A stretch of 64,000 nt of DNA from Flavobacterium hydatis (GTDB lineage Bacteria; Bacteroidota; Bacteroidia; Flavobacteriales; Flavobacteriaceae). A program made the position numbers and the translations under genes. The notes below the pieces were generated by a model. It was given only the letters and a program-made list of their open reading frames with translations. It ran no database searches and was not told where the DNA came from. Positions 3,020-60,683 of this stretch are shown here, piece after piece. Each line of letters begins with the position of its first letter. The first letter of the stretch is position 1. The DNA is taken from contig NZ_JPRM01000023.1 of assembly GCF_000737695.1 (NCBI RefSeq), positions 62,001-126,000 of the forward strand, in the 5' to 3' direction.

Positions 3020-5203
3020 TTAAAACTTAAGCGTTAATCCTGCTAAGAAGTTAATTCCTGCCTGTGGATAATAAGATGGATAAATATCCCACATAGCTCC
3101 GTTTGAAACATATTTTTTATCCAGAATGTTATTTACCAAACCAGTAATTGTAATTGATCTAAAAATAGATTTTGGTTTTATCTCGTAAGCAATATTCAAA
3201 TCGTTTGTAAAATAATCCGCTAGTTTCGCAGCTGGCAATTCTATATTATTCATGAATTGTTCTCCTACGTACTTTTGCAATAGCGAAACATACAATCCTT
3301 CTATTGGTTTATAAACAATAATGTTTCCTACTATTACTTCTGGTGAATAGGCAATACTTGTTGTACCATAATACTCTCCATCCACAGCCAAATCTACATT
3401 TTTGTTACTACTTAATGTAAAATTAGGTCTTATTATAAACTTTTCCGACAAGGCAATCGTAGCATCAACCTCTAGCCCTAAACGGTAACTTTTTTCGGTA
3501 TTTGCACGGATTGGAGCTCCAACATCATCTAACCTTCCTGTTAAAATCAATTGATCTTTGTATCCCATATAATATACATTTGAAGTCAATTGTACTTTCT
3601 CTGAATTATATCTCCATCCTAATTCAAAGTCATTTAATTTCTCTGGCTTTACATTTCCTCCTTCATAATCTGTTCTATTTGGCTCACGATTAGCTCTTGC
3701 ATAAGAGAAATACAAGGTGCTTTTTAAGTTGATTTCGTAATTCAATCCTGCTTTTGGATTAAAGAAATTAAAATTATCATCGACTAAACCAGTTTGTTTA
3801 CTATTGGCTTTATACTGTACATTTCTATATTGCAAATCACCATAAAAACTAAATTTATCGGTTAATTGATAATTTGCTTTCGCAAAAATATTCCCGTCTG
3901 TTTTTACTGAATGATCATCGTAATAACGATCTCCTAGTTCTGTTTGAGCAGCATTTCTTGCCCAAATTACTTTACCAAAATGATCGCCTTCATATCTATT
4001 CCAGCCTCCTCCTAAAATTACATCTAACTTATCTGTAACATATTTTGCAGAAAAAGTAGTTCCATAAAAATCATTATCCAACCATTTCTGGCGAATTAAA
4101 TCTGTTCCCGGAACTAATTCTCCTAAATCATTATACACCATCTTAGTAGGCTCAATTCCTCCGTAACCTTCAACTGGTTCATTATATTTATAATTCTCAT
4201 AATATCCTTTCCCTTTTGTATAATGCGCAGCAAGATTTGTACTCCATTTTTCGGATATAAACTCACTCCAATGCAACTGATAATGGTTTTGATTATAATT
4301 ATCGGTTTCATTATCATAAAAACGAATATTCCCTGATGCATCTTTAAACTTCCCTGCTGAGTTGTAGGTTCTGTTTGTATTTAGAGTTACTGCATCAATT
4401 CCGTTCCAAGCTTGGTACGTTTTTTCGGTTCCACCAAAAACCAAAGCTTTAATTAAAGTCGTTTTACCTACATAAGTTCCTTGCAAAAAATAAGATTTTA
4501 AATCGGTACTTGCTCTATCTATATATCCATCTGATTTTATAGTCGATAAACGTCCTGCAATTTCAAAATGGTCATTTAATAAACCCGTACTAAACTTAAC
4601 TGTATTTTTTAATGTATTGAATGATCCAACCGAAGTAGCAATTTCTCCCGTAGCCTTTGTAGCATAACTATCGGTCAATAAGTTTAAACTTGCTCCAAAA
4701 GCGCTCGAACCGTTTGTTGAGGTACCAACACCTCTTTGTAGCTGTAAACTCTCTACAGAAGAAGCAAAATCAGGCATATTTACCCAAAATGTTCCTTGAC
4801 TCTCTGCATCATTATATGGGATTCCGTTTATGGTAACATTTACTCTTGTAGCGTCACTTCCTCGTACACGTATTCCTGAATAACCTATTCCGTTTCCAGC
4901 ATCCGAAGTCGTAACAACCGACGGCATATAGTTCATAAGAACAGGGATATCCTGACCTAAATTTCTGAATTTAATGTCTTTTTTATTTAAATTACTAAAA
5001 CTAACAGGAGTTTTGGTTGTAACACGCACTGCCGAAACCAATACATTATCTAGCTGATTAACTTTGGTTGTATCTTGTACTTGTGCGAAAGAGTGAAGGG
5101 AATAGAAGAAAGAGAATAGAAAAAAGAGAGATGGCTTATAGTTTTTCAACTTTGAACCTTTGCAACTTAGTACCTCAGTACCTTTAATAAAAATAGTTTT
5201 CAT
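3020..5203 (-). CDS. TonB-dependent outer-membrane receptor, probable thiamine/TPP importer
   Basis: 727 aa from the ATG at 5203. An in-frame ATG at 5284 lies too close to the riboswitch and would give an unlikely N-terminus. A plug domain follows the signal peptide (DNVLVSAVRVTTKTPVSF, then the RGxGTSTNGSSAFGASLNL plug motif), and a 22-strand-type beta barrel ends in an aromatic residue (LAGLTLKF). There is no CarboxypepD_reg-like extension, so it is not a SusC. The gene sits behind a TPP riboswitch and near pnuT, so the inferred substrate is thiamine or a phosphorylated form, taken across the outer membrane with TonB energy. Odd point: the n-region of the signal peptide is lengthened by an in-frame octamer repeat (plus-strand 5141-5186). 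Confidence 0.92.
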   Translation of the reverse strand: MKTIFIKGTEVLSCKGSKLKNYKPSLFFLFSFFYSLHSFAQVQDTTKVNQLDNVLVSAVRVTTKTPVSFSNLNKKDIKFRNLGQDIPVLMNYMPSVVTTSDAGNGIGYSGIRVRGSDATRVNVTINGIPYNDAESQGTFWVNMPDFASSVESLQLQRGVGTSTNGSSAFGASLNLLTDSYATKATGEIATSVGSFNTLKNTVKFSTGLLNDHFEIAGRLSTIKSDGYIDRASTDLKSYFLQGTYVGKTTLIKALVFGGTEKTYQAWNGIDAVTLNTNRTYNSAGKFKDASGNIRFYDNETDNYNQNHYQLHWSEFISEKWSTNLAAHYTKGKGYYENYKYNEPVEGYGGIEPTKMVYNDLGELVPGTDLIRQKWLDNDFYGTTFSAKYVTDKLDVILGGGWNRYEGDHFGKVIWARNAAQTELGDRYYDDHSVKTDGNIFAKANYQLTDKFSFYGDLQYRNVQYKANSKQTGLVDDNFNFFNPKAGLNYEINLKSTLYFSYARANREPNRTDYEGGNVKPEKLNDFELGWRYNSEKVQLTSNVYYMGYKDQLILTGRLDDVGAPIRANTEKSYRLGLEVDATIALSEKFIIRPNFTLSSNKNVDLAVDGEYYGTTSIAYSPEVIVGNIIVYKPIEGLYVSLLQKYVGEQFMNNIELPAAKLADYFTNDLNIAYEIKPKSIFRSITITGLVNNILDKKYVSNGAMWDIYPSYYPQAGINFLAGLTLKF
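5141..5186 (-). repeat. Octamer-period dispersed repeat inside the receptor signal-peptide coding region
   Basis: On the minus strand the units AAAGGTAC, TGAGGTAC, TAAGTTGC, AAAGGTTC, AAAGTTGA follow one another with an 8-base period. The same array type recurs in a non-coding gap at 23221-23259. It is translated here into the extra residues between MKTIF and NYKPSLFFLF of the receptor. Confidence 0.75.
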
Positions 5204-5297
5204 CCGTAAATAATTACGAATAAAAGGGGGAATTATTCTTTTTGTTAAATTAATAAATGTTTCACGACAAAATATAGTGTGCACGCTAAAATTGTCG

Positions 5298-5385
5298 TTT
5301 TTTCCCTTAGCAACATTACTCGCTCAGGTTCTTTGGGTATGATCTCAGCTCGTTATTTAGAGCACCCCTTTGAGACGATGCAAAA
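5298..5385 (-). ncRNA. TPP (THI-element) riboswitch
   Basis: The minus strand carries the THI-box signature in order: AGGGGTGC, then GCTGAGATCATACCC, then GAACCTGAG, then GTAATGTTGC followed by AAGGGA. These are the pyrimidine- and pyrophosphate-sensing arms of the thiamine pyrophosphate aptamer. It lies directly upstream of the TonB receptor gene and ends about 95 bases before its start codon. Regulation is inferred to be repression at high TPP; no obvious terminator stem was found after it, so control may act on translation or on a structure I did not resolve. The aptamer identity is firm; the exact boundaries are approximate. Confidence 0.95.
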
Positions 5386-5458: not shown

Positions 5459-5863
5459 TTAATCTAAATCAGGCTTCCTACGAGATTGCTTTATCTCCGA
5501 AACGTTCTTTTTATCCTTGATACGTTTACGAATTACTGATTTTGGAACCTTAGTCGCTTTTCGAGGTTTCTGAATTATTAATGCATTCTTAATCAATTCT
5601 AAAAAACGTTTTGTTACAATACTTTTATTTTTTAGCTGACTTCTGTCTTCATCACAATTCAAAATTAAAACTGTATCTAAAGTTAATCTTGTCGCTAATT
5701 TTATTTCTAAAAGTATTTTTTCTTCTGCAGATAAAGCTTGTGAATTTCGTAAATCAAAGCTCAAAACTACCTTTGAGGATACTTTGTTTACATTCTGTCC
5801 GCCAGCGCCACTACTGCGAACAGCTTTATAAGTTAACTCTGTAACAATTTTTTCTATTTCCAT
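5459..5863 (-). CDS. arfB: Alternative ribosome-rescue factor ArfB (YaeJ-like peptidyl-tRNA hydrolase)
   Basis: 134 aa, the length of ArfB and far shorter than RF1/RF2. The catalytic GGQ loop is intact (SSGAGGQNVNKVSSK), followed by the family's FDLRNS strand. The C-terminus is a basic tail (RKRIKDKKN...KQSRRKPDLD) of the kind that probes the empty mRNA channel of stalled ribosomes. The protein hydrolyses peptidyl-tRNA on non-stop ribosomes. Its ATG overlaps the stop codon of the upstream kinase-DUF4301 gene by one base (TAATG), suggesting translational coupling, although no functional link to thiamine is evident. Confidence 0.93.
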   Translation of the reverse strand: MEIEKIVTELTYKAVRSSGAGGQNVNKVSSKVVLSFDLRNSQALSAEEKILLEIKLATRLTLDTVLILNCDEDRSQLKNKSIVTKRFLELIKNALIIQKPRKATKVPKSVIRKRIKDKKNVSEIKQSRRKPDLD

Positions 5864-7977
5864 TATTGTGGCTGATGAGCTGCTTTTAATAAATCGTTTA
5901 CTGTTTTTACAGGATTAAAAGTAATTATCGGTACTGCAACAAAAACAGTTAACCATTTTGCCATTGCACCGTTCCACAGTCCTGGTAATTCGTAACTTTT
6001 TACCGTTTGTCCTAAATTACTCTTCTCAACTATAAAACCAGCATTATTATCTACAAATTGCATCAAATCAAATTTTTGGCTTTTATAATTTTTTATCCCA
6101 CAAACTAAATCTACTGGGTTAAAATGAGTTGCATTTGCTAAAATAGCTGCTTGGTTTTTATCTTCTAAATCTACCTGTGAAGCTTCGACAATCTGAAGCG
6201 AAATAACTCCTTCTTCATCCTGAACCCAAAATGGCCCTCCTCCTGGTTCTCCTTCATTTTTTACCATTCCGCATACGCGAATTGGTCTATCTAGAACTTC
6301 TTTTATTCTATTTGCTTTATTTTCTAAAGTAAGTTCTTCAATATCTGCTCCTACTTCTATATTCAGATTCTGTTTTAAAAACAAAACTACCTCAGTAATC
6401 TTTTCTTCTGTTACTTCCTTATTTTCGATATCCCTTAAATATCCGAAAATCTTATTTTGTAATTCTATTAGAATCCCTGCCAAAGCTTTTTTATATAAAG
6501 CAATTTTCTCGATATGATTCTGGATTACATTATCGATGTTCTTAATAAAAATAACATCTGCATCTAGATTATTCAAGTTTTCTATTAAAGCCCCATGTCC
6601 GCCTGGTCTAAATACCAATTGCCCATCATCGGTTCTTACTGGTTTATTTTCTAAATCTACAGTAATTGAATCGGTACTTTTATTTTGATAAGAATAACTG
6701 ATTCCGATTTTTGTTCCTGACTCTTTCTCAATTTTTGTTTTAACAGCATCAACACATTCTTCAAATTGACTTTGATGAATTTCTGAAACTGTAAAATGTA
6801 AATTTGAAACAGAATTTGAACTAGCGTAATAAGCACATTCATGCAAATGTTCCTCGATAGGATTTGCAATATGAGTTTTATATTGATGAAAAGGTAAAAC
6901 TGCTTTTGGTTTATTAGCAAAATCAAAATAATCTGAAGCCAATAATATTTTTATAAAATAATAATTTTTATAATCTGTGCTTAAAGAATCAAAATCAGGA
7001 TATACTTCTCTTAACTTTTTATCTACAGCTTCAAAAAAAGGAAACTTATCCATCCCTATAATAAAAAGAGATAACTGACTTTCTTTCTTTCTATTGATGT
7101 ATGCATTAATACTCTCCTTTTCGATATTAAAATCATTTAGAAATGCACTCAAAAACTTAAACATCCTGCTTGCTGCTCCCGATGCTGGAACGAATTTTTT
7201 TAGCTTTAAATTCGATTTATTCCCATCAAATACAGCCGCTTTAGTTTCAAAATCAGCCTCCGATAAGTTCAAAATTCCGTTTAAAACTGTAGCTGGACTT
7301 ATTAAGTTACTTTTGTTTATTCCGCTTTTAAAAATCTCTAATTGATTTTTAATTTTTTCAAAAGGAATTCCGTACTCATAAATCTGTACAAAATCGGCCG
7401 AAGAAAACCCTAATTCTTTAGCAATTGTCAAATTATTGATTATTTCTATTGCCTTAGCCAAGCGTAATTCTTTATTCCCTGATAAGGTTATATACGGTTT
7501 TCTAGTCTTTACTACTGTTTCTTTAAAAACTGAAAAAACAGATTCTCTTTCGTTTGGACTGTCCCGAATATCATCTTTCTCCCAAGGAACATCTATATCG
7601 GTAAGGAAAAATAAGTCGTATTCGTGTTCTAGTGCAGCTTCATTTAATAGTGGATTACAAAAACCATAGTACATCTCCGAGAATACTTTGGTTACCATAA
7701 GATTGGTATCGCAAAATAAATACTTATTTGCTAAAGCTAATTTTTCGTTTTCTAGTTTTGTTTGCCCATAAGCAATTGGCATCATATCTTCCTCAACACA
7801 AATATGCTGATTCTCTTCCCATCTTTCTTGAAGATAATCACGTGCAAACTCAGGAACCCACTCCGTTTCATAATACGAAGCAAGTTGCTTAGCCAAAGTT
7901 GTTTTACCAGTACTCTCGGGACCGAATAAAGCAAATTTTAATATTCTTGTATCTTGTTGTTTAAGATTTTCTTCCAT
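5863..7977 (-). CDS. NadR-like P-loop kinase fused to DUF4301 domain
   Basis: 704 aa starting at the ATG at 7977; the frame is open further upstream but that stretch lies inside pnuT. Residues about 12-190 form a NadR-type (AAA_28) kinase: Walker A GPESTGKTT (19-27), the segment FCDTNLMVTKVFSEMYYG, and PWEKDDIRD in the lid region, as in nicotinamide riboside kinases. The remaining ~500 residues match DUF4301, an uncharacterised Bacteroidetes family. Its start, FVPASGAASRMFKFL, resembles the nucleotide-binding loop of sugar-nucleotidyltransferases, and it has a second glycine-rich motif RPGGHGALIENLN. Next to pnuT and near a TPP-controlled receptor, the kinase half is inferred to phosphorylate imported thiamine and trap it in the cell. 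The role of DUF4301 is unknown. Confidence 0.85.
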   Translation of the reverse strand: MEENLKQQDTRILKFALFGPESTGKTTLAKQLASYYETEWVPEFARDYLQERWEENQHICVEEDMMPIAYGQTKLENEKLALANKYLFCDTNLMVTKVFSEMYYGFCNPLLNEAALEHEYDLFFLTDIDVPWEKDDIRDSPNERESVFSVFKETVVKTRKPYITLSGNKELRLAKAIEIINNLTIAKELGFSSADFVQIYEYGIPFEKIKNQLEIFKSGINKSNLISPATVLNGILNLSEADFETKAAVFDGNKSNLKLKKFVPASGAASRMFKFLSAFLNDFNIEKESINAYINRKKESQLSLFIIGMDKFPFFEAVDKKLREVYPDFDSLSTDYKNYYFIKILLASDYFDFANKPKAVLPFHQYKTHIANPIEEHLHECAYYASSNSVSNLHFTVSEIHQSQFEECVDAVKTKIEKESGTKIGISYSYQNKSTDSITVDLENKPVRTDDGQLVFRPGGHGALIENLNNLDADVIFIKNIDNVIQNHIEKIALYKKALAGILIELQNKIFGYLRDIENKEVTEEKITEVVLFLKQNLNIEVGADIEELTLENKANRIKEVLDRPIRVCGMVKNEGEPGGGPFWVQDEEGVISLQIVEASQVDLEDKNQAAILANATHFNPVDLVCGIKNYKSQKFDLMQFVDNNAGFIVEKSNLGQTVKSYELPGLWNGAMAKWLTVFVAVPIITFNPVKTVNDLLKAAHQPQ

Positions 7978-8561
7978 TCTAAATAAGCTGAAATAGCCAA
8001 AATTGTAAAAATTAAATATTGGAATGATAACATTCCTAACCCACGATAAGCATATAAAGGCACCACAATAATGTCGCCAATAATCCAAAGGGTCCAATTT
8101 TCTATCTTTTTCTTTGCCATATACCACATTCCGGTAAAGAATATGCCTGAGGCAAGAATATCAATATAATTATCTTTATGTAACTCGTAATCGAAAAATT
8201 TATAGATACCAAAAACTACAAAAATTGTAATGACGAATAGTCCAATACCTATTATTTTTTCCTGATTATTGGTACGTGTAATTGGTAAATTATCTTCTTG
8301 ATTTGTTCCTTTTGCCCAGTTGTACCAGCCATAAATACTCATAATCGAGAAATATCCATTAATCATCATATCGCCTAAATAACCTGCTATATAAAGCAAA
8401 TAAACCGAAATTACTGTGGCTATTAATCCTGTAGGATATACCCAAATATTTTCTTTTTTAGCAAACCAAACACTTAAAATCCCAAACACAAAAACAAGAA
8501 ACTCTAAGCCAATATGCCAAAGAGGAACATTTTTGTACGCATTAAGAAAAAAATCAATCAT
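7938..8561 (-). CDS. pnuT: PnuC-family vitamin transporter, probable thiamine transporter PnuT
   Basis: 207 aa, with about seven hydrophobic segments as in PnuC proteins. It carries family signatures: YGWYNW in the middle and a Trp-rich segment (NWTLWIIGDIIVVPLY) that lines the substrate site in PnuC transporters. These proteins pass an unphosphorylated vitamin through the inner membrane by facilitated diffusion and depend on a cytoplasmic kinase for trapping. Its 3' end overlaps the start of the NadR-like kinase gene by about 40 bases, a tight pairing that mirrors PnuC with NadR. PnuT rather than PnuC or PnuX is inferred from the TPP riboswitch and receptor nearby; the specificity is not proven by sequence. 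Confidence 0.85.
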   Translation of the reverse strand: MIDFFLNAYKNVPLWHIGLEFLVFVFGILSVWFAKKENIWVYPTGLIATVISVYLLYIAGYLGDMMINGYFSIMSIYGWYNWAKGTNQEDNLPITRTNNQEKIIGIGLFVITIFVVFGIYKFFDYELHKDNYIDILASGIFFTGMWYMAKKKIENWTLWIIGDIIVVPLYAYRGLGMLSFQYLIFTILAISAYLEWKKILNNKIQEY

Positions 8562-8595: not shown

Positions 8596-9324
8596 TTAGG
8601 ATTCAAAAAAATGAACATCATTTTCAAAAGCTGTTCCTATAACTACTAGATCTGCCCCCATTTCATAGGCTTTTTGAATTTGAGACAAAGCTACAATTCC
8701 GCCGCCAACAATTAGTGGGATATTTATATTTTGAGAAATCAATTGAATCATTTCTAAAGGAACGGCTTGCTTAGCTCCACTTCCTGCCTCTAGATAAATT
8801 AATTTATTACCCAACATTTCGCCTGCTTGTGCTGTTGCTAATGCCAAATCGAGATTTGTTCTATCTAGAGGCTTAGTTTTACTAACGCGTGCAACTGCAG
8901 TTTCGTTTCCGCTTTCTATTAAAATATATCCTGTTGGAATAATCTCCAAATTCATTCTTTTTAATATTGGCGCTGCCTGAACCTGATATTCGATTAAATA
9001 ATCTGGATTTCTACCCGACAATAACGATAAAAACAAAATTGCATCGGCTTGTGGCGAAATTTGCGATGGATCTCCAGGGAAAATTATAACGGGCAAAGTC
9101 GTTTTTAATTTTAACTGAAAAACTAAATCTTCGAGAATTGTACTTTCTACCAAACTACCTCCTACAAAAATATGTGTAGCGGGCGATTGATTTATTTTTT
9201 GCAGTAAGCAATCAAGATTTTGCCAAGTAATTTTATCTGGATCCAAAAGAATTGCAAGTAATTTTCGATTCTCGATTTTGGCCAATCGTATTTGTTTGTA
9301 TATGTCTTGTACTTTTTGTTCCAT
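8596..9324 (-). CDS. Geranylgeranylglyceryl / heptaprenylglyceryl phosphate synthase (PcrB-like)
   Basis: 242 aa from the ATG at 9324 (MEQKVQDIYK). A TIM-barrel prenyltransferase with the family's features: AILLDPDK near the N-terminus (Mg/phosphate site), THIFVGGS, an IPTGYILIESG segment binding the polyprenyl chain, IYLEAGSGA, and the phosphate-binding loops VGGGI and GTAFEND. It joins a polyprenyl diphosphate to sn-glycerol-1-phosphate, the first step of archaeal-type ether lipids. Bacteroidetes members of this family (group II, including one from F. johnsoniae) have been studied, but their lipid product's role is unclear. It lies 34 bases upstream of pnuT on the same strand, so it may head that transcript. 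Confidence 0.92.
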   Translation of the reverse strand: MEQKVQDIYKQIRLAKIENRKLLAILLDPDKITWQNLDCLLQKINQSPATHIFVGGSLVESTILEDLVFQLKLKTTLPVIIFPGDPSQISPQADAILFLSLLSGRNPDYLIEYQVQAAPILKRMNLEIIPTGYILIESGNETAVARVSKTKPLDRTNLDLALATAQAGEMLGNKLIYLEAGSGAKQAVPLEMIQLISQNINIPLIVGGGIVALSQIQKAYEMGADLVVIGTAFENDVHFFES

Positions 9325-9377
9325 AACGAGCGTAAAAGTAAAAGTTTTTTTATGCAAGAGAACTATTTCGAATCAAT

Positions 9378-11606: not shown

Positions 11607-11787
11607 TCGTTTTAATTGTGAATTATGAGTTGTTAATTATAAATTATGCATGGTATTAAAAATACGAAAATATAAATTATGTTTTCTAAAGCTTTTAAGT
11701 GATGTAAGTAAATTAATCCTTAAATTATATGAATTTAAATGACTTATATAATATGCTTAGGTCAATTTTAAATATATCTGGTCTTTC

Positions 11788-11872
11788 TAGCCCTGATGGT
11801 AACGGCATCCTATTGTGGCGGGGTTCGCCGCAATAGATATAGTGGACAGCAGGAAATAGCTTCGAATAAAAA
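11788..11872 (+). repeat. Dispersed structured repeat, copy 1 of 2
   Basis: Begins TAGCCCTGATGGTAACGGC and ends GGACAGCAGGAAATAGC. Between these arms lies a hairpin TATTG...CGG-GGTTCG-CCGCAATA. The outer arms can pair (CCTG with CAGG). A second copy at 60604-60683 has the same arms with compensating changes and a different inner hairpin. Role unknown; it is not specific to ahcY. Confidence 0.75.
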
Positions 11873-60552: not shown

Positions 60553-60603
60553 CTTATTTGTCATTTTCTAGGAACGAGAAACATTCTTATGAAAACAATT
60601 GCC

Positions 60604-60683
60604 CTAGCCCCGATAGAAGTGGAAATCCTTTTGCTTTTTTCTTTAAAAAGCAAAAGATTGTAACGAATAGCGGGATTAGCTCC
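60604..60683 (+). repeat. Dispersed structured repeat, copy 2 of 2
   Basis: Arms TAGCCCCGATAGAAGTGG and ACGAATAGCGGGATTAGC around an inner perfect hairpin CTTTTGCTTTTT-TCTTT-AAAAAGCAAAAG. Relative to copy 1 (11788-11872) the outer pair CCTG/CAGG has become CCCG/CGGG, a compensating change, and the inner hairpin is different but still pairs. Confidence 0.75.

What the first reader, a model, noticed from the sequence alone, without database searches (positions are those of the whole stretch)
5863..8561. PnuT overlaps a NadR-like kinase fused to DUF4301
Seen: pnuT overlaps by about 40 bases a 704-aa protein whose first 190 residues are a NadR-type kinase (Walker A GPESTGKTT) and whose remaining ~500 residues match DUF4301, a family with no known function. 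Known: PnuC-type transporters need a kinase that traps the vitamin. Inference: the kinase half phosphorylates thiamine, and DUF4301, with a nucleotidyltransferase-like loop (FVPASGAASRMF), may act on the product or on a linked nucleotide. This would be an untested bifunctional enzyme in thiamine salvage.
Basis: partly seen in the sequence, partly recalled or inferred. Interest (0 to 1): 0.72.

Follow-up and report, generated by a model that had tools for sequence, protein, structure and literature searches.

The report
Thiamine-uptake kinase fused to UGPase-like enzyme
A Flavobacterium-like bacterium carries one protein that joins a likely vitamin B1 kinase to a family of unknown function, which turns out to have the fold of the enzymes that make UDP-glucose; the two halves probably do separate jobs and merely travel together.

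Summary
pnuT (8561..7938, -) overlaps by 40 nt a 704-aa ORF (7977..5863, -): AAA_28/NadR-type kinase (residues 14-170) plus DUF4301 (193-702).

The kinase belongs with PnuT: it adjoins pnuT with or without DUF4301, usually near a thiamine-binding-protein gene. All 17 sampled family genomes outside the window's genus lack thiamine pyrophosphokinase (TPK), and all 17 have pnuT beside this kinase. The four sampled family genomes without it have TPK. I infer thiamine -> TMP, then ThiL.

DUF4301 looks like a nucleotidyltransferase, not evidently a thiamine enzyme. Its confident model (pLDDT 90.9) matches UDP-glucose/UDP-GlcNAc pyrophosphorylases (Foldseek 2.7e-10; Z 24.4) and keeps GHG, NxDN and PVK..DLL motifs. 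It is away from pnuT in 30 of 66 genomes, 14 of them without any PnuT/PnuC. It is missing from five genomes that keep pnuT-kinase, and persists in 13 pnuT loci without the kinase.

All 44 fusions found adjoin pnuT and lie in three places on the tree. The TPP riboswitch is weak and lies before the TonB receptor gene, not pnuT. No activity is shown; DUF4301's substrate is unknown.

The parts
7938..8561 (-). pnuT, PnuC/PnuT-type transporter (207 aa)
   Evidence: PF04973 E 3.7e-50; in a starred fork of 30 with kinase-linked and four TPK-linked transporters, without E. coli PnuC
5863..7977 (-). kinase-DUF4301 fusion gene, 704 aa
   Evidence: full-length model pLDDT 89.4, pTM 0.82
7468..7938 (-). 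AAA_28 (NadR ribosylnicotinamide-kinase-like) domain, residues 14-170
   Evidence: PF13521 E 5.7e-40; PDB sequence matches NadR 9x6f 2.1e-22, 8x7f 5.9e-14, 1lw7 6.8e-13; Foldseek 8x7f E 8e-9, rmsd 1.9 over 177 columns
7900..7923 (-). Walker A GPESTGKT, residues 19-26
   Evidence: sequence; a Walker A of this form in 99 of 99 kinase ORFs examined
5872..7401 (-). DUF4301 domain, residues 193-702: UDPGP-like nucleotidyltransferase fold
   Evidence: PF14134 E 3e-201; model pLDDT 90.9; Foldseek 3r3i 2.7e-10; VIA-align 2i5k Z 24.4
7159..7194 (-). FVPASGAASRMF, proposed nucleotide-binding loop, residues 262-273
   Evidence: mostly invariant in alignments A1-A3; pattern in 142 of 146 loci; role inferred from the fold
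6592..6600 (-). GHG motif, residues 460-462
   Evidence: aligned to GHG of UDP-GlcNAc pyrophosphorylase 3oc9 (E 0.023); 145 of 146 loci
6529..6540 (-). NxDN motif, residues 480-483
   Evidence: aligned to NVDN of 3oc9; 146 of 146 loci
5905..5913 (-). PVK of TFNPVKTVNDLL, residues 689-691; proposed catalytic lysine K691
   Evidence: a relative's FNPVKEVNDLL aligned with FLPVKTCSDLL of UGPase 8c0b/7ppr (weak, E 0.088 and 0.1); 146 of 146 loci; catalytic role of that lysine is recalled
5459..5863 (-). arfB-type ribosome-rescue hydrolase gene, downstream and overlapping by one base
   Evidence: PRK09256 E 8.7e-34
5286..5379 (-). TPP riboswitch aptamer (weak), upstream of the TonB receptor gene
   Evidence: RF00059 36.5 bits, E 1.8e-4; core pattern at the same place, between arfB and the receptor gene, in 13 of the 80 named loci
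3020..5284 (-). TonB-dependent outer-membrane receptor gene (ORF as listed; a more likely ATG lies near 5203)
   Evidence: PF00593 and PF07715

Best explanation
The gene is a fusion of two enzymes that were neighbours in a thiamine-uptake operon. Shown: a NadR-type P-loop kinase domain followed directly by a DUF4301 domain whose predicted fold and several conserved motifs are those of UDP-sugar pyrophosphorylases. Inferred: PnuT lets thiamine in; the kinase domain phosphorylates it to TMP and so traps it; ThiL makes TPP. Because pnuT and the kinase gene overlap by 40 nt, their translation is probably coupled. The DUF4301 half is a nucleotidyltransferase that couples an NTP to a phosphate ester, most likely a sugar-1-phosphate, with release of pyrophosphate. 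Its job is probably housekeeping and independent of thiamine. The halves were fused because tightly packed or overlapping neighbouring genes readily fuse, not because one passes its product to the other.
For: Kinase: it adjoins pnuT in 5 of 5 family genomes without DUF4301 and in all 99 fused or separate kinase loci with DUF4301. A Thiamine_BP gene (PF01910 tested on one member, E 4.1e-7; others assigned by similarity) lies before pnuT in 10 of 10 separate-kinase loci of the 66-genome set and is present in 37 of 45 of the named set, but in only 1 of 22 named fused loci. TPK is absent from 17 of 17 family genomes outside the window's genus and present in 24 of 24 of that genus; ThiL is in 33 of 33 tested. 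In the 66-genome set the kinase is missing beside pnuT in four genomes, all with TPK. Outside the family, of 13 transporter regions that I picked, 5 of 5 with the kinase lie in genomes without TPK and 8 of 8 without it in genomes with TPK. DUF4301 fold and motifs. Independence of the halves.
Against: No activity was measured. The kinase's nearest solved relatives are nicotinamide riboside kinases. The window's own genome has TPK, so the kinase is not strictly needed there, and 20 of 24 genomes of its genus keep both. In the transporter tree only 4 of 10 TPK-linked transporters share the window's starred fork; 4 lie just outside it and 2 on the E. coli PnuC side. Fusion at three places on the tree, always of the same partners, and a 4-nt kinase/DUF4301 overlap in 19 of 45 separate loci hint at a functional link. 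The synteny block (SAHH-PPT-PcrB-pnuT-kinase-DUF4301-arfB) is old, so neighbourhood alone proves little either way. DUF4301's loop departs from the usual glycine-rich loop, and the window's own DUF4301 does not match PF01704 at E<=1.
Confidence: 0.62

Rival explanations
1. The fusion is a true bifunctional salvage enzyme, a re-ordered analogue of NadR: the kinase makes TMP and the DUF4301 half transfers a nucleotide to TMP or TPP, giving an adenylated or uridylylated thiamine.
For: Same two-step logic as NadR (kinase plus nucleotidyltransferase); DUF4301 is of nucleotidyltransferase fold; fusion at three places on the tree; in family f1 DUF4301 is beside pnuT in 36 of 41 sampled genomes.
Against: 30 of 66 DUF4301 genomes have it away from pnuT, 14 of them with no PnuT/PnuC at all; five genomes keep pnuT-kinase without it; DUF4301 survives without the kinase in 13 pnuT loci.
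Confidence: 0.07
2. The transporter and kinase serve nicotinamide riboside, not thiamine.
For: Kinase and transporter both match NAD-salvage families by name (TIGR01526 below cut-off; TIGR01528 at 85.8 bits, above its 42.45 cut-off); best PDB relatives of the kinase are NadR.
Against: TIGR01526 scores 92.1 of 341.15 bits and covers only the kinase part; Thiamine_BP neighbour; TPP riboswitch before the receptor gene; kinase beside the transporter in all 22 TPK-less genomes examined (17 of the family, 5 outside); the window's PnuT does not group with E. coli PnuC.
Confidence: 0.15
3. DUF4301 replaces a left-handed-beta-helix sugar nucleotidyltransferase (my alignment A4) and makes the same NDP-sugar.
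For: In family f17, 0 of 14 DUF4301 genomes have A4 against 52 of 65 without DUF4301; in f35, 0 of 4 against 8 of the 9 others that appear in my listings. Both are nucleotidyltransferases by family or fold.
Against: In f1 32 of 36 DUF4301 genomes also have an A4-type gene, as do four of four f22 and two of three f48 genomes. The Fisher values (1.6e-8 by genome, 2.1e-5 by genus in f17) ignore shared ancestry. A4 sits with metK and ahcY, which does not point to a sugar.
Confidence: 0.25

Closest known systems
NadR (ribosylnicotinamide kinase / NMN adenylyltransferase)
   Same: Kinase half has the same fold and motifs; a kinase joined to a nucleotidyltransferase and coupled to a Pnu transporter
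   Different: No NMNAT domain found; nucleotidyltransferase is of UDPGP fold and C-terminal; thiamine context
UDPGP superfamily (UDP-glucose, UDP-GlcNAc and UDP-sugar pyrophosphorylases)
   Same: Predicted whole-domain fold (Z 24.4 to yeast Ugp1p, 320 residues, 3.6 A, 19% identity); GHG, NxDN and PVK..DLL motifs
   Different: Below the PF01704 cut-off, different loop (PASGAASRMF); all loci studied are from Bacteroidota samples (other phyla were covered only by 14 control genomes and a capped scan)
Bacteroides pnuT-tnr3 (thiamine transporter plus thiamine pyrophosphokinase)
   Same: PnuT next to a thiamine-phosphorylating enzyme, TPP riboswitches, outer-membrane receptor (PMC5613172, passages seen)
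   Different: The enzyme beside PnuT here is NadR-type, probably TMP-forming, instead of TPK; the riboswitch precedes only the receptor gene
FKP, fucokinase/GDP-fucose pyrophosphorylase (recalled)
   Same: Kinase and pyrophosphorylase fused in one salvage protein
   Different: There both halves act on one sugar; here the halves appear independent

Membership tests
DUF4301 (PF14134) | Score over the Pfam gathering cut-off along the profile | tested here: met
   670.1 bits against 27, profile positions 2-507
UDPGP superfamily | Fold of UDP-sugar pyrophosphorylases | tested here: met
   On a predicted model: Foldseek 21 hits at E<=1e-3, all of this superfamily; VIA-align Z 24.4, 320 aligned
UDPGP superfamily | GHG, NxDN and PVK-x-x-x-DLL motifs | tested here: met
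   Aligned to 3oc9 and 8c0b/7ppr (both weak sequence matches); GHG, NxDN and PVK present in 145, 146 and 146 of 146 loci
UDPGP (PF01704) | Pfam gathering cut-off, 22 bits | tested here: not met
   7 of 20 members match at E<=1, best 0.0019; the window's does not; G009's DUF4301 reaches 18.5 bits
UDPGP superfamily | Glycine-rich nucleotide loop of the usual form (recalled L-x-G-G-x-G-T) | tested here: not met
   Loop is PASGAASRMF, conserved
UDPGP superfamily | NTP:sugar-phosphate nucleotidyltransferase activity | not testable with these tools
   needs the purified protein
NadR | RNK-type P-loop kinase domain | tested here: met
NadR | N-terminal NMN adenylyltransferase domain and TIGR01526 cut-off 341.15 bits | tested here: not met
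   92.1 bits, profile positions 166-318 only
Thiamine kinase (function) | Phosphorylates thiamine | not testable with these tools
   indirect:
PnuT (thiamine PnuC homologue) | Groups with thiamine-linked transporters and apart from nicotinamide-riboside PnuC | tested here: inconclusive
   Starred fork of 30 rows (21 kinase-linked, 4 TPK-linked, 5 with neither), without E. coli PnuC; but 6 of 10 TPK-linked rows lie outside it (quick tree with long branches). NCBIfam names it PnuC, TIGR01528
TPP riboswitch RF00059 | Gathering score 54.3 bits | tested here: not met
   36.5 bits, E 1.8e-4; relatives L171 and L186 reach 75.6 and 56.2, the other 9 of 11 loci searched show none at gathering

The most novel reading that the evidence does not exclude
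The fusion is a new kind of vitamin-nucleotide enzyme: its kinase half makes TMP and its UDPGP-like half joins TMP (or TPP) to a nucleotide, producing an adenylated or similar thiamine dinucleotide, so that thiamine is salvaged the way NadR salvages nicotinamide riboside.
Probability: 0.05. Interest if true: 0.9.

Novelty: new variant of a known kind. Interest (0 to 1): 0.55.

Why it matters
DUF4301 was found in 66 of 395 Bacteroidota genomes and is annotated in gut Bacteroides and Parabacteroides records, yet a full-text search of the held library found the name in one paper. Assigning it the UDP-sugar pyrophosphorylase fold, with candidate motif residues, turns an unknown family into a short list of assays. 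The kinase result fills a gap: the 17 sampled family genomes outside the window's genus carry the thiamine-type transporter but lack the usual pyrophosphokinase, and a NadR-type kinase plus ThiL would explain how they use thiamine.

Tried and rejected
DUF4301 as a thiamine enzyme: rejected as the main reading on distribution. TPP riboswitch control of pnuT-kinase: not supported; the aptamer is downstream of them. DUF4301 as a stand-in for canonical GalU or UDPGP: not informative; only 3 of 79 sampled genomes pass the GalU cut-off and one UDPGP match (partial) passes its cut-off. Complementarity with the A4 nucleotidyltransferase: strong in f17 and f35, broken in f1, f22 and f48, kept as a rival only. 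Neighbours of DUF4301 outside the family gave no common pathway: RelA/SpoT, WS/DGAT and SpoIIE-type proteins, glycosyltransferase, transcription-repair helicase, PALP and STAS. Paper searches that led nowhere; the PnuT paper PMC5749112, PMC5029205 and 10.1074/jbc.M208965200 are not held. The three phage records that match DUF4301 are short unannotated faecal contigs, probably bacterial DNA (not tested further).

The recount mended earlier counts: my ORF caller had hidden pnuT in L090, L091, L098, L125 and L161, so L125 is now counted with pnuT (one search says without) and all separate-kinase loci have pnuT; the TPP pattern between arfB and the receptor gene is in 13, not 14, named loci.
Full report
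WHAT IS THERE. On the minus strand the window reads PcrB-like gene (9357..8596), pnuT (8561..7938), a 704-aa fusion gene (7977..5863), arfB (5863..5459), a weak TPP aptamer (5379..5286) and a TonB receptor gene (ORF 5284..3020). The fusion is one uninterrupted ORF. Its first part is AAA_28 (residues 14-170), the rest is DUF4301 (193-702). pnuT overlaps the fusion gene by 40 nt and arfB overlaps it by one base, so the set looks like one tight operon. Many relatives show a pnuT-kinase overlap of 37 to 55 nt; others appear longer because my caller takes the first start codon, and one (L166) shows 4 nt.

NAMES. The genomes of the genome search are unnamed. I take genus g1 as Flavobacterium and family f1 as Flavobacteriaceae because the closest named loci (the first eleven, 68-75% identical in DUF4301, are titled Flavobacterium) and the other named loci mostly carry Flavobacteriaceae names; this is inference.

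RIBOSWITCH. The TPP aptamer scores 36.5 bits, under Rfam's 54.3. It is probably real: the core pattern recurs between arfB and the receptor gene in 13 of the 80 named loci, directly before a receptor gene but farther on in L166, and elsewhere downstream in L160 and L171. At Rfam's gathering score 2 of 11 loci searched have it, L171 (75.6) and L186 (56.2), downstream of DUF4301 or of the kinase; 9 of 11 do not, among them two with the pattern. It was not seen in front of pnuT. A second aptamer (73.7 bits) lies about 10 kb left of the window, before a thiC-thiE-thiD-thiE-thiG-thiH-thiF run (gene names read by me from the translations).

SURVEY. DUF4301 occurs in 66 of 395 genomes of the phylum sample. 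I fetched all 66 neighbourhoods, about 8 kb on each side where the contig allowed (the window for its own genome): 22 fused with the kinase, 10 with a separate kinase, 4 beside pnuT without a kinase, 30 with neither. A scan of named genomes gave 80 loci, the best 80 of 583 relatives and so biased to Flavobacteriaceae: 22 fused, 45 separate, 9 with pnuT but no kinase, 4 with neither, of which L170 starts at a contig end (corrected by 108). All 44 fusions and all 55 separate kinases adjoin pnuT. In the tree of 146 domains the fused ones lie in three places: a clade of 54 rows (41 fused, 13 without kinase), L085 with L165, and L089; seven label changes are needed, five forced by well-supported branches (FastTree, some long branches).

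KINASE HALF. Nearest solved proteins by sequence are NadR (2.1e-22, 5.9e-14, 6.8e-13), and the model of the fusion matches NadR 8x7f at 1.9 A over 177 columns. It is not NadR: TIGR01526 reaches 92.1 of 341.15 bits and covers the kinase part only. Thiamine is favoured for these reasons. A Thiamine_BP-type gene accompanies pnuT in 10 of 10 separate-kinase loci of the first set and 37 of 45 of the second, though in 1 of 22 named fused loci (Pfam was run on one member). TPK (PF04263) is in 24 of 24 genomes of the window's genus and in 0 of 17 others of the family, while all 41 have a PnuT-family transporter. All 17 have the kinase beside it: 10 separate, 2 fused, 5 without DUF4301. ThiL is in 33 of 33 genomes tested, a chosen subset that includes all 17, so TMP can be finished to TPP. 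In the first set the kinase is missing beside pnuT in four genomes, all of the genus with TPK; in one, L094, a short N-terminal remnant without Walker A may remain (E 0.012 in a one-sequence search). The nine such named loci (seven titled Flavobacterium, two broader MAG titles) were not tested for TPK. Outside the family I fetched 13 transporter regions, picked by me: five have the kinase beside the transporter (G030, G033, G076, G273, G300), all without TPK; eight do not (G012, G017, G210, G249, G275, G281, G331, G371), all with TPK. Against: no activity is shown, and the window's genome has a TPK over the cut-off.

TRANSPORTER. In a quick tree of 42 proteins the window's PnuT falls in a starred group of 30 (21 kinase-linked, 4 TPK-linked, 5 with neither), apart from E. 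coli PnuC; of the other six TPK-linked rows four lie just outside this group and two on the E. coli PnuC side (in that call L048 and L094, which lack the kinase, were labelled kinase-linked by me). Genome G182 holds a second pair, a transporter beside a protein that matches NadR along both domains (TIGR01526 165.4 bits, below its 341.15 cut-off). That transporter joins E. coli PnuC in the tree, but the program warns that both are long branches, so the join is unsure.

DUF4301 HALF. A model from 59 aligned sequences, all from the window and named loci, has mean pLDDT 90.9 and pTM 0.90. Foldseek against PDB gives 21 matches at E<=1e-3, all UDP-glucose, UDP-GlcNAc or UDP-sugar pyrophosphorylases, best 2.7e-10. 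VIA-align gives Z 24.4 to yeast Ugp1p (320 residues, 3.6 A, 19% identity); the first 48 of 50 rows shown are of that superfamily, then GlmU at 18.0 and 17.8. TM-scores of those 21 are modest (0.33-0.52) with high rmsd, so parts have shifted. Sequence agrees weakly but in the right places: the profile's best PDB hit is a UDP-GlcNAc pyrophosphorylase over the GHG and NxDN motifs (E 0.023); one DUF4301 aligns its FNPVKEVNDLL with FLPVKTCSDLL of UGPase (E 0.088 and 0.1), while another, L065, finds no such protein; 7 of 20 members match PF01704 at E<=1, best 0.0019; one matches at 5.5e-4 in a genome search, below the cut-off. Motifs by pattern: NxDN, FNPV, PGLWNG and PVK in 146 of 146 loci, GHG in 145, the loop in 142. 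So DUF4301 works, most likely, like a UGPase, but I do not file it in PF01704 because that cut-off and the usual loop are not met. I could not check how Pfam groups DUF4301 into clans.

ARE THE HALVES LINKED? Outside family f1 none of the 30 DUF4301 genes of the first set has pnuT or the kinase in the fetched stretch, and 14 of those genomes have no PnuT/PnuC homologue. In the five f11/f12 genomes DUF4301 is divergent from a RelA/SpoT gene (one member 57% identical to the gene so annotated in Parabacteroides), as in two named genomes. In f1 it is missing from 5 of 41 genomes that keep the pnuT-kinase pair. Thirteen loci keep it beside pnuT with no kinase, and two Aquimarina loci keep it in the block without pnuT or kinase. 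These facts argue for separate functions. The repeated fusion and a 4-nt overlap in 19 of 45 separate pairs argue the other way; tight or overlapping neighbours may simply fuse easily. The full-length model has pTM 0.82, which does not establish a working interface.

A LEAD ON THE SUBSTRATE. Searching GalU-like enzymes pointed to a left-handed-beta-helix nucleotidyltransferase (A4; NCBIfam best rmlA_long, below cut-off). In family f17 DUF4301 and A4 never co-occur: 0 of 14 against 52 of 65, 13 genomes with neither; by genus 0 of 8 against 23 of 27 (Fisher 1.6e-8 and 2.1e-5, uncorrected for ancestry). Some of these genomes are incomplete. In f35, counting the 13 genomes that my listings show, 0 of 4 against 8 of 9. 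But in f1 32 of 36 DUF4301 genomes have an A4-type gene, as do four of four f22 and two of three f48 genomes. In two of the regions with A4 the next genes are metK and ahcY (L206, L211). This is a lead, not a result.

LITERATURE. DUF4301 is named in one held paper, PMC7035244 (listing only). Bacteroides pnuT-tnr3 and the genetics of PnuT were seen in passages of PMC5613172. Passages of PMC7221760, PMC12442306 and PMC6593275 were seen; none of the passages shown describes a NadR-type thiamine kinase. The searches for such a kinase were made; subscription papers are mostly not held, so this is no proof of absence.

Noticed in passing
own genome G000:C23:52239-52336 (L202), about 10 kb left of the window: A strong TPP riboswitch (73.7 bits) precedes a thiC-thiE-thiD-thiE-thiG-thiH-thiF run, so the organism should make its own thiamine.
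   Followed up: partly
L069-L073, L099, L100: In Bacteroidales and Bacteroidales-like genomes DUF4301 stands back to back with a RelA/SpoT gene, a possible shared promoter region.
   Followed up: partly
L206, L207, L209, L211, L216, L218: A beta-helix nucleotidyltransferase is followed by an about 380-aa gene and then another long ORF, shown to be metK and ahcY in L206 and L211 (metK also in L209); an unexplained pairing. DUF4301 of the window's family also lies near an ahcY gene.
   Followed up: partly
window 11785-11860 and 60602-60681, +: Two Flavo-1 RNAs (67.1 and 81.5 bits).
   Followed up: no
L068 (G289): DUF4301 is split into two ORFs; a pseudogene or an assembly error.
   Followed up: no
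L094: The fusion's kinase part may be decayed to about 110 residues without Walker A while DUF4301 is intact.
   Followed up: partly
L192 (G182): A separate PnuC-like plus NadR-like pair next to a TonB-receptor-like gene, in a genome that also has PnuT-kinase-DUF4301.
   Followed up: partly
L194, L195, L198, L199, L201 against L187-L190, L193, L196, L197, L200: Outside the family too, the NadR-type kinase stands beside the transporter exactly in the sampled genomes that lack TPK (5 of 5 against 0 of 8).
   Followed up: partly
L114: A record titled Klebsiella pneumoniae MAG carries a plainly Flavobacterium-like locus; mislabelled or mixed.
   Followed up: no
MT839125.1, MT837672.1, MT837181.1: Short faecal 'Bacteriophage sp.' records encode DUF4301, probably bacterial contamination.
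   Followed up: no
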